Shown: in pieces, positions 45,811 to 47,257 of the stretch
Numbering within the stretch: position 1 is the stretch's first letter
Layout: each line of letters opens with the position of its first letter
Assembly: GCF_000152265.2 (NCBI RefSeq)
Contig: NC_021592.1
Location: 992,001 to 1,056,000, forward strand
DNA: 64,000 nucleotides
Direction: 5' to 3'
DNA from: Ferroplasma acidarmanus Fer1
Lineage (GTDB): Archaea; Thermoplasmatota; Thermoplasmata; Thermoplasmatales; Thermoplasmataceae
Program-made: the position numbers and the translations under genes
Notes under the pieces: model-generated
Database searches by the model: none
Seen by the model: only the letters and a program-made list of their open reading frames with translations
What the model was told of the DNA's origin: nothing

Positions 45811-45927
45811 TCCTGTTTTTAGTTTGCATATTACATTTACCAGCAATTTTTCATATTTTATAATTTATTTTAAGTGGAACGAAGATTTAAATTTATTAGC
45901 TATATCGGTTGCATACTCCGTCAACTA

Positions 45928-45947
45928 CCCACAGCTAAAGCAGTGAG
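45928..45947 (-). repeat. 3' (RE) hairpin overlapping the tnpB stop
   Basis: On the minus strand CTCACTGC-TTTA-GCTGTGGG forms an 8-bp stem with one mismatch. It overlaps the tnpB stop codon (45935-45937). In known TnpB elements this hairpin forms the 3' scaffold of the guide (omega/re) RNA. Confidence 0.6.
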
Positions 45948-47050
45948 CTTGCAACTGGGCTGTCACAATGGACAATAAAATCACCCGCTACAATAGGCTG
46001 GTTGGCAACAGCCCTGTTCCTGATATTAAGGGAAGCAATATAATCTGCTTCTCCCTTTAATCCACAGGAAATGCATTTGAAAACTGACCTCTCAGGCCTG
46101 TTTTTTTTAGATATAGTATGGCAGTTAGGGCATTCCCTGCTTGTGTTATGTGGGTCTATAACAATAACGGGAATGCCTGCTTCCATAGCTTTGTATTCTA
46201 TAAACAGCCTGAGCTGGTAGAAAGCCCATGAATTATGGATATATCTATTTCCTTTTTTAACAGTTTCCCTCATTCTTATACCACTGAGATCTTCAATGGC
46301 AATAGCGGAAGAGGTGCCTCTGGCTTTATTTACTATTTCTTTGGATATTATATGGTTGGTATTTGTAGCAAACCTATGCTCTTTTCCTGAAAGCTTTTTA
46401 AGATGCCTTTTTGCTGATTTAGTATTAACGGATTGCAATCTGGAACGGAGATCTAAATTGTGTTCCCTTACATTCTTGATCTCATCTCCGGAATAGTATT
46501 TGCCTGTGGAGTCCACGGAGATGTTTACTATACCCATATCTACACCTATAACATTCTTAGGTTCAATAACTGGTTGTTCCGGTATATCAATACTTACCAT
46601 TAGATAGAAAATTTTATGCTTTCTTACAAGGTCACATTGGCCCCTTACCATATCAAAGGGTATATCAGCATATTTTCCAATGGTTATAGGTATTCTTATT
46701 CTTCCCTTAATGGTGTTAAGGCTTACTTCATTCATACTTTTAAAGCTCATTATTCTCTGGTCATATACAATTGAGCCATACTCACGGAACTCATGGAATA
46801 CTGATCTATCAACTGTGTAGGTGTCCACAACCTTTGCAATAACTCTTATGGTTAACTGTGCTGATAACCCTAATTTGTTTCTAATATCATAATATACTAA
46901 TTTCTGAAGGGATATTTTATTGTATATTTTATTATCCCATGCTATTTTAGAGACAAAGTTGCATGCTTCATTGAACTGCCTGAATGTGTCAAGGAGTAGA
47001 GCCTTCTGATTATCGTCTGGAAGCAACTTGATTTGAAGGGTTTTGAGCAC
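45935..47050 (-). CDS. tnpB: TnpB RNA-guided nuclease / OrfB transposase
   Basis: A 371-residue TnpB. RuvC-like motifs: D in IGVDMGIVNISVDS, E in IAIEDLSGIRMRE, and D in GEADYIASLNI; zinc finger CPNC…CISC near the C-terminus; N-terminal LKTLQIKLLPDDNQ. All catalytic residues are present, so nuclease activity is possible. The GTG at 47050 is chosen because a TATA-like TTTTATATAT lies about 25 bases before it. Relatives are the ancestors of Cas12. Confidence 0.9.
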   Translation of the reverse strand: MLKTLQIKLLPDDNQKALLLDTFRQFNEACNFVSKIAWDNKIYNKISLQKLVYYDIRNKLGLSAQLTIRVIAKVVDTYTVDRSVFHEFREYGSIVYDQRIMSFKSMNEVSLNTIKGRIRIPITIGKYADIPFDMVRGQCDLVRKHKIFYLMVSIDIPEQPVIEPKNVIGVDMGIVNISVDSTGKYYSGDEIKNVREHNLDLRSRLQSVNTKSAKRHLKKLSGKEHRFATNTNHIISKEIVNKARGTSSAIAIEDLSGIRMRETVKKGNRYIHNSWAFYQLRLFIEYKAMEAGIPVIVIDPHNTSRECPNCHTISKKNRPERSVFKCISCGLKGEADYIASLNIRNRAVANQPIVAGDFIVHCDSPVASSLL

Positions 47051-47094
47051 AATATTCAAATATAAACTCAATATATAAAATTGTCGCAACTCCT

Positions 47095-47114
47095 CCTATG
47101 ACTGAAGTCATAGG
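47095..47114 (-). repeat. 5' (LE) hairpin of the TnpB element
   Basis: CCTATGAC-TGAA-GTCATAGG, a perfect 8-bp stem with a 4-base loop, followed by a second small stem CCTT-GCG-AAGG at 47118-47128; likely subterminal transposon stem. Confidence 0.6.
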
Positions 47115-47257
47115 CTTCCTTGCGAAGGGGTCGTGATCCAGATTTCAAATTAAATTATTGAAATGTTGTTGATTTAACTATCTTAAACATAATATGGCAA
47201 AATTAAAATGATAAACTAAATAATGTACCGGTTATAAGCTCCGGTGGTGATATTAAA

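What the first reader, a model, noticed from the sequence alone, without database searches (positions are those of the whole stretch)
45900..47140. TnpB locus with an intact nuclease and a reRNA-like 3' end
All RuvC residues are present. A hairpin overlaps the stop codon and is followed by GTGGGTAGTTGAC, after which the minus-strand flank (about 45901-45920) would be the guide. Without tnpA the locus may be a domesticated or stranded guide-RNA nuclease.
Basis: partly seen in the sequence, partly recalled or inferred. Interest (0 to 1): 0.55.

Follow-up and report, generated by a model that had tools for sequence, protein, structure and literature searches.

The report
TnpB-only jumping gene in an archaeon
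This is one of several copies of an ordinary small archaeal jumping gene that carries its own RNA-guided DNA-cutting enzyme but appears to borrow the enzyme that moves it, so it looks like a mobile element and not a gene taken over by its host.

Summary
The sequence observation holds. On the minus strand, 45920-47132 is a complete 1213-bp IS200/IS605-type element. It has a left end, an intact tnpB (GTG start 47050, stop 45935; RuvC D/E/D and zinc finger present), and a right end that overlaps the stop and closes in GTGGGTAGTTGAC. The predicted guide starts at 45919. The same genome holds four intact copies of identical layout, each 3' of TCAC and ending in TTGAC. Two same-species genomes carry copies at different sites. 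Three empty sites in related genomes keep a single TCAC with no target duplication. Both ends satisfy the IS608 guide/cleavage-site pairing rule. TnpB is under strong purifying selection (dN/dS 0.09-0.17). The genome has one intact Y1 transposase gene, in a related element that has lost its own left end; supply in trans is the likeliest route, but only inferred. The 3' end folds into a conserved scaffold with compensatory changes. Predicted TAM: TCAC. This is a new member of a known kind. One oddity stays open: in the sister strain the window's empty site reads GCCA, not TCAC.

The parts
45920..47132 (-). whole tnpB-only IS200/IS605-type element, 1213 bp
   Evidence: same 1213-bp unit between TCAC and TTGAC in 4 of 4 full copies of this genome and in L021
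47133..47136 (-). TCAC, left cleavage site and predicted TAM, retained in the flank
47115..47118 (-). GAAG, left guide tetranucleotide (GL)
   Evidence: pairs with TCAC by the IS608 rule, 3 of 3
47095..47114 (-). left-end hairpin CCTATGACTTCAGTCATAGG
   Evidence: sequence; conserved in the copies
45935..47050 (-). tnpB, 371 codons plus stop, GTG start
45920..46044 (-). predicted reRNA scaffold (125 bases used for the alignment; true 5' end unknown), overlapping the end of tnpB
45948..45951 (-). CAAG, right guide tetranucleotide (GR)
   Evidence: pairs with TGAC by the IS608 rule, 3 of 3
45928..45947 (-). right-end hairpin, containing the stop codon
45920..45923 (-). TGAC, right cleavage site, last four bases of the element
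45900..45919 (-). predicted guide (20 bases of flank)
   Evidence: sequence; guide position by analogy with PMC8612924 and PMC11043419 (passages)

Best explanation
The locus is a mobile, non-autonomous IS200/IS605-type insertion sequence that carries tnpB but no tnpA. Movement (inferred): a Y1 transposase TnpA made elsewhere in the cell binds the two end hairpins on single-stranded DNA, cuts after TCAC and after TTGAC through guide/cleavage-site base pairing, excises the element and inserts it 3' of another TCAC without duplication. Maintenance (inferred from known TnpBs): the 3' transcript plus about 16-20 bases of flank forms a reRNA with TnpB; the complex would cut the resealed donor site (TCAC plus flank), and repair from a copy that still holds the element restores it. 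The resident guide follows TTGAC and not TCAC, so the locus should not cut itself. Shown here: boundaries, copies, empty sites, pairing rule, purifying selection, conserved structured 3' end. Not shown: RNA, cleavage, source of transposase.
For: Four intact copies at four sites with the same ends; two more intact ones at other sites in the same-species genome G061 and one in another species (L021). Empty sites with one TCAC and no duplication, 3 of the 5 found. IS608 pairing rule met at both ends. dN/dS 0.09-0.17 in 21 of 21 pairs of 7 intact copies, D/E/D kept in 7 of 7. Full-length TnpB model match. Structured 3' end with two-sided changes in 7 of 28 pairs. One intact Y1 transposase gene in the genome.
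Against: No tnpA in the element, and no proof that the resident TnpA accepts these ends: its own element family uses TTAC and TCAG. Two of the 5 empty sites, both in G061, do not read TCAC (GCCA and TTAC). No copy in the genome is a close duplicate (element identity 88-93% for all pairs), so movement inside this genome is not directly seen. No RNA or cleavage data. Five of the 7 two-sided pairs are in the terminal hairpin, which also works as DNA.
Confidence: 0.85

Rival explanations
1. The locus is a domesticated TnpB kept at a fixed place for a host function (regulator or defence nuclease) and no longer moves.
For: No tnpA in cis; strong purifying selection.
Against: Several intact copies with flank-derived, all different guides; window copy absent from a same-species genome; ends intact; flanks are unrelated genes (for the window; for the others).
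Confidence: 0.04
2. A stranded element: TnpB is intact but the copy can no longer be moved because no suitable transposase remains in this genome.
For: Only one intact TnpA gene, in an element whose left end is lost here, with other tetranucleotides. Copies differ by 7-12% from one another, so none is a fresh local duplicate.
Against: That TnpA is intact as a protein (Y1_Tnp 139 bits). In IS608 the tetranucleotides are read by DNA guides and not by the protein (PMC5934647 passages), so another element's TnpA could serve. Left ends of the two groups share GATCCCTT.GCA and a guide plus hairpin. Copies sit at different sites in two genomes of one species.
Confidence: 0.1
3. A decayed transposon remnant without function.
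For: Relics of the same element exist in the genome (right-end relic L012) and a broken copy in G061.
Against: Open frame, catalytic residues and both ends intact; dN/dS 0.09-0.17.
Confidence: 0.01

Closest known systems
IS608 (Helicobacter pylori), IS605 group
   Same: Insertion 3' of a fixed tetranucleotide kept in the left flank, subterminal hairpins, guide tetranucleotides 5' of each hairpin obeying the same pairing (PMC5934647 passages)
   Different: TCAC/GAAG and TGAC/CAAG here against TTAC/AAAG and TCAA/GAAT; no tnpA here
SisTnpB1 / TnpB7 elements of Sulfolobus islandicus REY15A
   Same: Archaeal TnpB; right end closes in a fixed motif followed by the guide; TAM equals the left-end site (PMC10640517, PMC11043419 passages)
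   Different: There TAM TTTAA and right-end motif TTCAC; here TCAC and TTGAC. Those were tested in the laboratory, this one was not
ISDra2 TnpB
   Same: reRNA from the 3' end of tnpB and the right end plus about 16 nt of flank; RuvC nuclease (PMC8612924 passages); homologous chain 8h1j, E 2.3e-05
   Different: TAM TTGAT; distant in sequence
IS605 elements of Halanaerobium hydrogeniformans
   Same: Many elements with intact ends but a single intact tnpA; movement in trans proposed (PMC7290912 passages)
   Different: A bacterium; other ends
tnpA+tnpB element L063/L065 of G061
   Same: Similar left end GATCCCTTAGCAG-AAAG-hairpin and right hairpin GCTTTAGCTGTGGG
   Different: Uses TTAC and TCAG; TnpB about 40% identical to the window's

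Membership tests
TnpB RNA-guided nuclease | full-length TnpB profile match | tested here: met
   NF040570 172 bits, cut-off 100
TnpB RNA-guided nuclease | RuvC D, E, D and zinc-finger cysteines | tested here: met
TnpB RNA-guided nuclease | structured 3' region overlapping the end of tnpB and the right end | tested here: met
   RNA or DNA role not separated in the terminal hairpin
TnpB RNA-guided nuclease | reRNA is made and guides cleavage | not testable with these tools
   no RNA or biochemical data
IS200/IS605 family | subterminal hairpins at both ends | tested here: met
IS200/IS605 family | insertion 3' of a fixed short sequence without target duplication | tested here: met
   TCAC at 4 of 4 copies here; 3 of 5 empty sites show one TCAC, 2 of 5 show altered bases
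IS200/IS605 family | guide/cleavage-site pairing at both ends | tested here: met
   3 of 3 pairs at each end (rule)
IS200/IS605 family | Y1 transposase gene tnpA in the element (autonomous members) | tested here: not met
   none in 45920-47132; one intact gene elsewhere. So filed as a non-autonomous tnpB-only member, not as an autonomous IS605
Domesticated TnpB | single fixed place, transposon ends lost | tested here: not met
Domesticated TnpB (nuclease-dead regulators such as TldR; recalled) | RuvC residues lost | tested here: not met
   D/E/D present in 7 of 7 intact copies

The most novel reading that the evidence does not exclude
In the sister strain G061 the bases at the window's empty site are GCCA where TCAC is expected, and TTAC at the 659-kb empty site. 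This could be the mark of TnpB at work in nature: a donor site that lost the element survives cutting only if its TAM is changed, so vacated sites would carry a TAM scar. The reciprocal empty sites in this genome (for L060 and L061) keep TCAC but differ from the guides at other positions.
Probability: 0.07. Interest if true: 0.55.

Novelty: new member of a known kind. Interest (0 to 1): 0.22.

Why it matters
It adds a cleanly bounded TnpB element of an extreme acidophile with a predicted TCAC TAM, with guide and cleavage tetranucleotides that changed together relative to a related element in the same species, and with a two-strain set of filled and empty sites that could be used to test whether TnpB leaves marks on vacated sites. 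As a system it is ordinary.

Tried and rejected
Domestication: rejected on copy number, intact ends and site differences. Foreign target of the guide: 0 matches to the 20-base guide in viral contigs; within the window only itself at up to 4 mismatches. The whole genome was not searched for the guide. Plasmid records: no match to the element. Rfam at gathering score: only a tRNA in the window, so the scaffold matched no curated family there.

TAM-scar statistics: 3 of 4 TAM bases differ at the window site, against 39 of 600 in the joined flanks. Taken alone this has chance about 0.001, but the test was chosen after seeing the site. A single template switch is possible, because CTGGAGCCAG in G061 is an inverted repeat (my reading). 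Any change in the 4 bases at the 659-kb site has chance 0.17. Not taken as evidence of TnpB action.

The 485-kb site gave no resolved empty site. The site of L021 was not examined. For the scaffold alignment 28 loci were scanned, 25 gave a right end, 22 were aligned: L012 and L067 (relics ending in TTGGT) and L126 (cut by a contig end) were dropped; L128, L129 and L013 gave none. A short left-end/right-end fusion beside L012 was looked at as a possible mini-element, but the stretch around it is missing from G061, so it says nothing on mobility. Structure prediction was not run: homology was enough, and relatives fetched by the genome search are not on the list of allowed inputs.

Full report
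What is there. The window lies in a 1.935-Mb single-contig genome, G000. The 'same species' genome G061 has 1,826,943 bases, exactly the size given for Ferroplasma acidiphilum Y in PMC5473848 (passages). I take G000 for its close relative 'F. acidarmanus' fer1; that name is my inference. The paper treats the two strains as one species. On the minus strand, tnpB runs from a GTG at 47050 to a stop at 45935. It matches the curated TnpB model over its whole length and aligns with Cas12f chains through the RuvC and zinc-finger region.

Boundaries. Four full copies exist in the genome; the other three are 91-92% identical in protein to the window copy. Each is 1213 bp, preceded by TCAC and ending in GTGGGTAGTTGAC. 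One in another species of the genus (L021, G002) and two in G061 (L060, L061) have the same layout. The window element is 45920-47132.

Empty sites. Of six insertion sites studied, five gave an empty allele in a relative. Three keep exactly one TCAC and no duplication: the helicase site in G001 (L081), and the L060 and L061 sites in this genome (L098, L108). Two in G061 do not: the window site reads CTGGA-GCCA-GGAGTATGC and the 659-kb site TTAC. The 485-kb site was not resolved. The helicase insertion is shared with G061, where tnpB is broken and the left flank differs.

Transposase logic. In IS608, insertion occurs 3' of TTAC, and the cleavage sites are read by guides 5' of each hairpin: TTAC/AAAG and TCAA/GAAT, with pairs A+16:T-3 and A+17:T-4 (PMC5934647, abstract and passages). 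The pair at the fourth position is my reading of those tetranucleotides. The window element has TCAC/GAAG and TGAC/CAAG, 3 of 3 pairs at both ends. The tnpA+tnpB elements L063 and L065 of G061 have TTAC/AAAG and TCAG/GAAC, again 3 of 3 (sequences). So guide and cleavage site changed together between two related element groups. The one intact transposase gene of this genome (L018; Y1_Tnp 139 bits) sits in an element (L005, same right flank as L065) that lacks the left end L065 has. A second tnpA is in pieces (L019, L020). That this TnpA moves the window element is inference.

RNA. The last 125 bases of 22 right ends were aligned. RNAalifold gave 24 pairs. A 28-pair structure has 97.0% of cells paired against 91.0% shuffled, 7 pairs with two-sided changes against 3.7, and 27 such cells against 7.5; slid controls reach at most 49.8% and 2 pairs. 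The structure was drawn on these same sequences, and many rows are close relatives. Five of the 7 two-sided pairs are in the terminal hairpin, which also serves the transposase as DNA; the other two come from one sequence. The window stretch alone folds only modestly better than shuffles (z -1.90). So a structured right end is firm; RNA function is inferred from known TnpB systems (PMC8612924, PMC11043419, PMC10640517, passages only).

Evolution. Seven intact copies give dN/dS 0.09-0.17 in all 21 pairs, with dS 0.28-0.45. Element DNA identity is 88-93% for every pair of the 8 copies compared: mean 90.3% within G000, 90.2% between G000 and the intact G061 copies, and 91.2% between G000 and L021 of G002 (means), although flanking DNA of G002 is only about 74-78% identical. 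So the copies in one genome are not a local burst, and spread between species is likely.

What is in print. A search for Ferroplasma with TnpB found 0 papers. A search for TnpB, TAM and TTCAC found 2: PMC11043419, where TTCAC is a right-end motif of Sulfolobus elements (passages), and one phage paper seen only in the listing. IS605 OrfB genes in Ferroplasma are mentioned in general terms (PMC5473848, passages), and IS counts by family (PMC12350378, passages). These searches cover only the held open-licence library.

Verdict. An ordinary, well-formed, probably mobile tnpB-only IS605-type element. The nuclease and guide reading is likely right by homology; the domesticated or stranded reading is not supported.

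Noticed in passing
L051 (G061), + strand 2121-2124: Empty site of the window insertion in the sister strain reads GCCA where TCAC is expected; 3 of 4 bases differ although the neighbouring 5' flank and the first 12 guide bases are identical.
   Followed up: partly
L005/L018 (G000:C1:1525721-1530027): The only intact tnpA of the genome lies in an element whose left end has been replaced; the same insertion in G061 (L065) still has its left end.
   Followed up: partly
L001-L004, L021, L060, L061, L066: All copies are about equally distant (88-93% DNA identity) whichever genome they lie in, including another species: a star-like pool without local bursts.
   Followed up: partly
L003 (G000:C1:1863662-1867774): One copy interrupts a large helicase gene with a PLD-like N-terminal part (my reading of the translation); the same insertion in G061 carries a broken tnpB.
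   Followed up: partly
L060 (G061:C1:1180997-1182109): A copy in G061 sits inside what reads as an AMP-ligase gene; the empty allele in G000 is uninterrupted with one TCAC.
   Followed up: partly
L012, + strand 2772-2819 (G000:C1:618846-618893): A 48-base left-end/right-end fusion between TTCAC and TTGAC, about 1.3 kb from a right-end relic that closes in TTGGT.
   Followed up: partly
L064 (G061:C1:1417311-1417982): A tnpB-only relative of the tnpA+tnpB group with the same right end and no tnpA in the fetched stretch.
   Followed up: no
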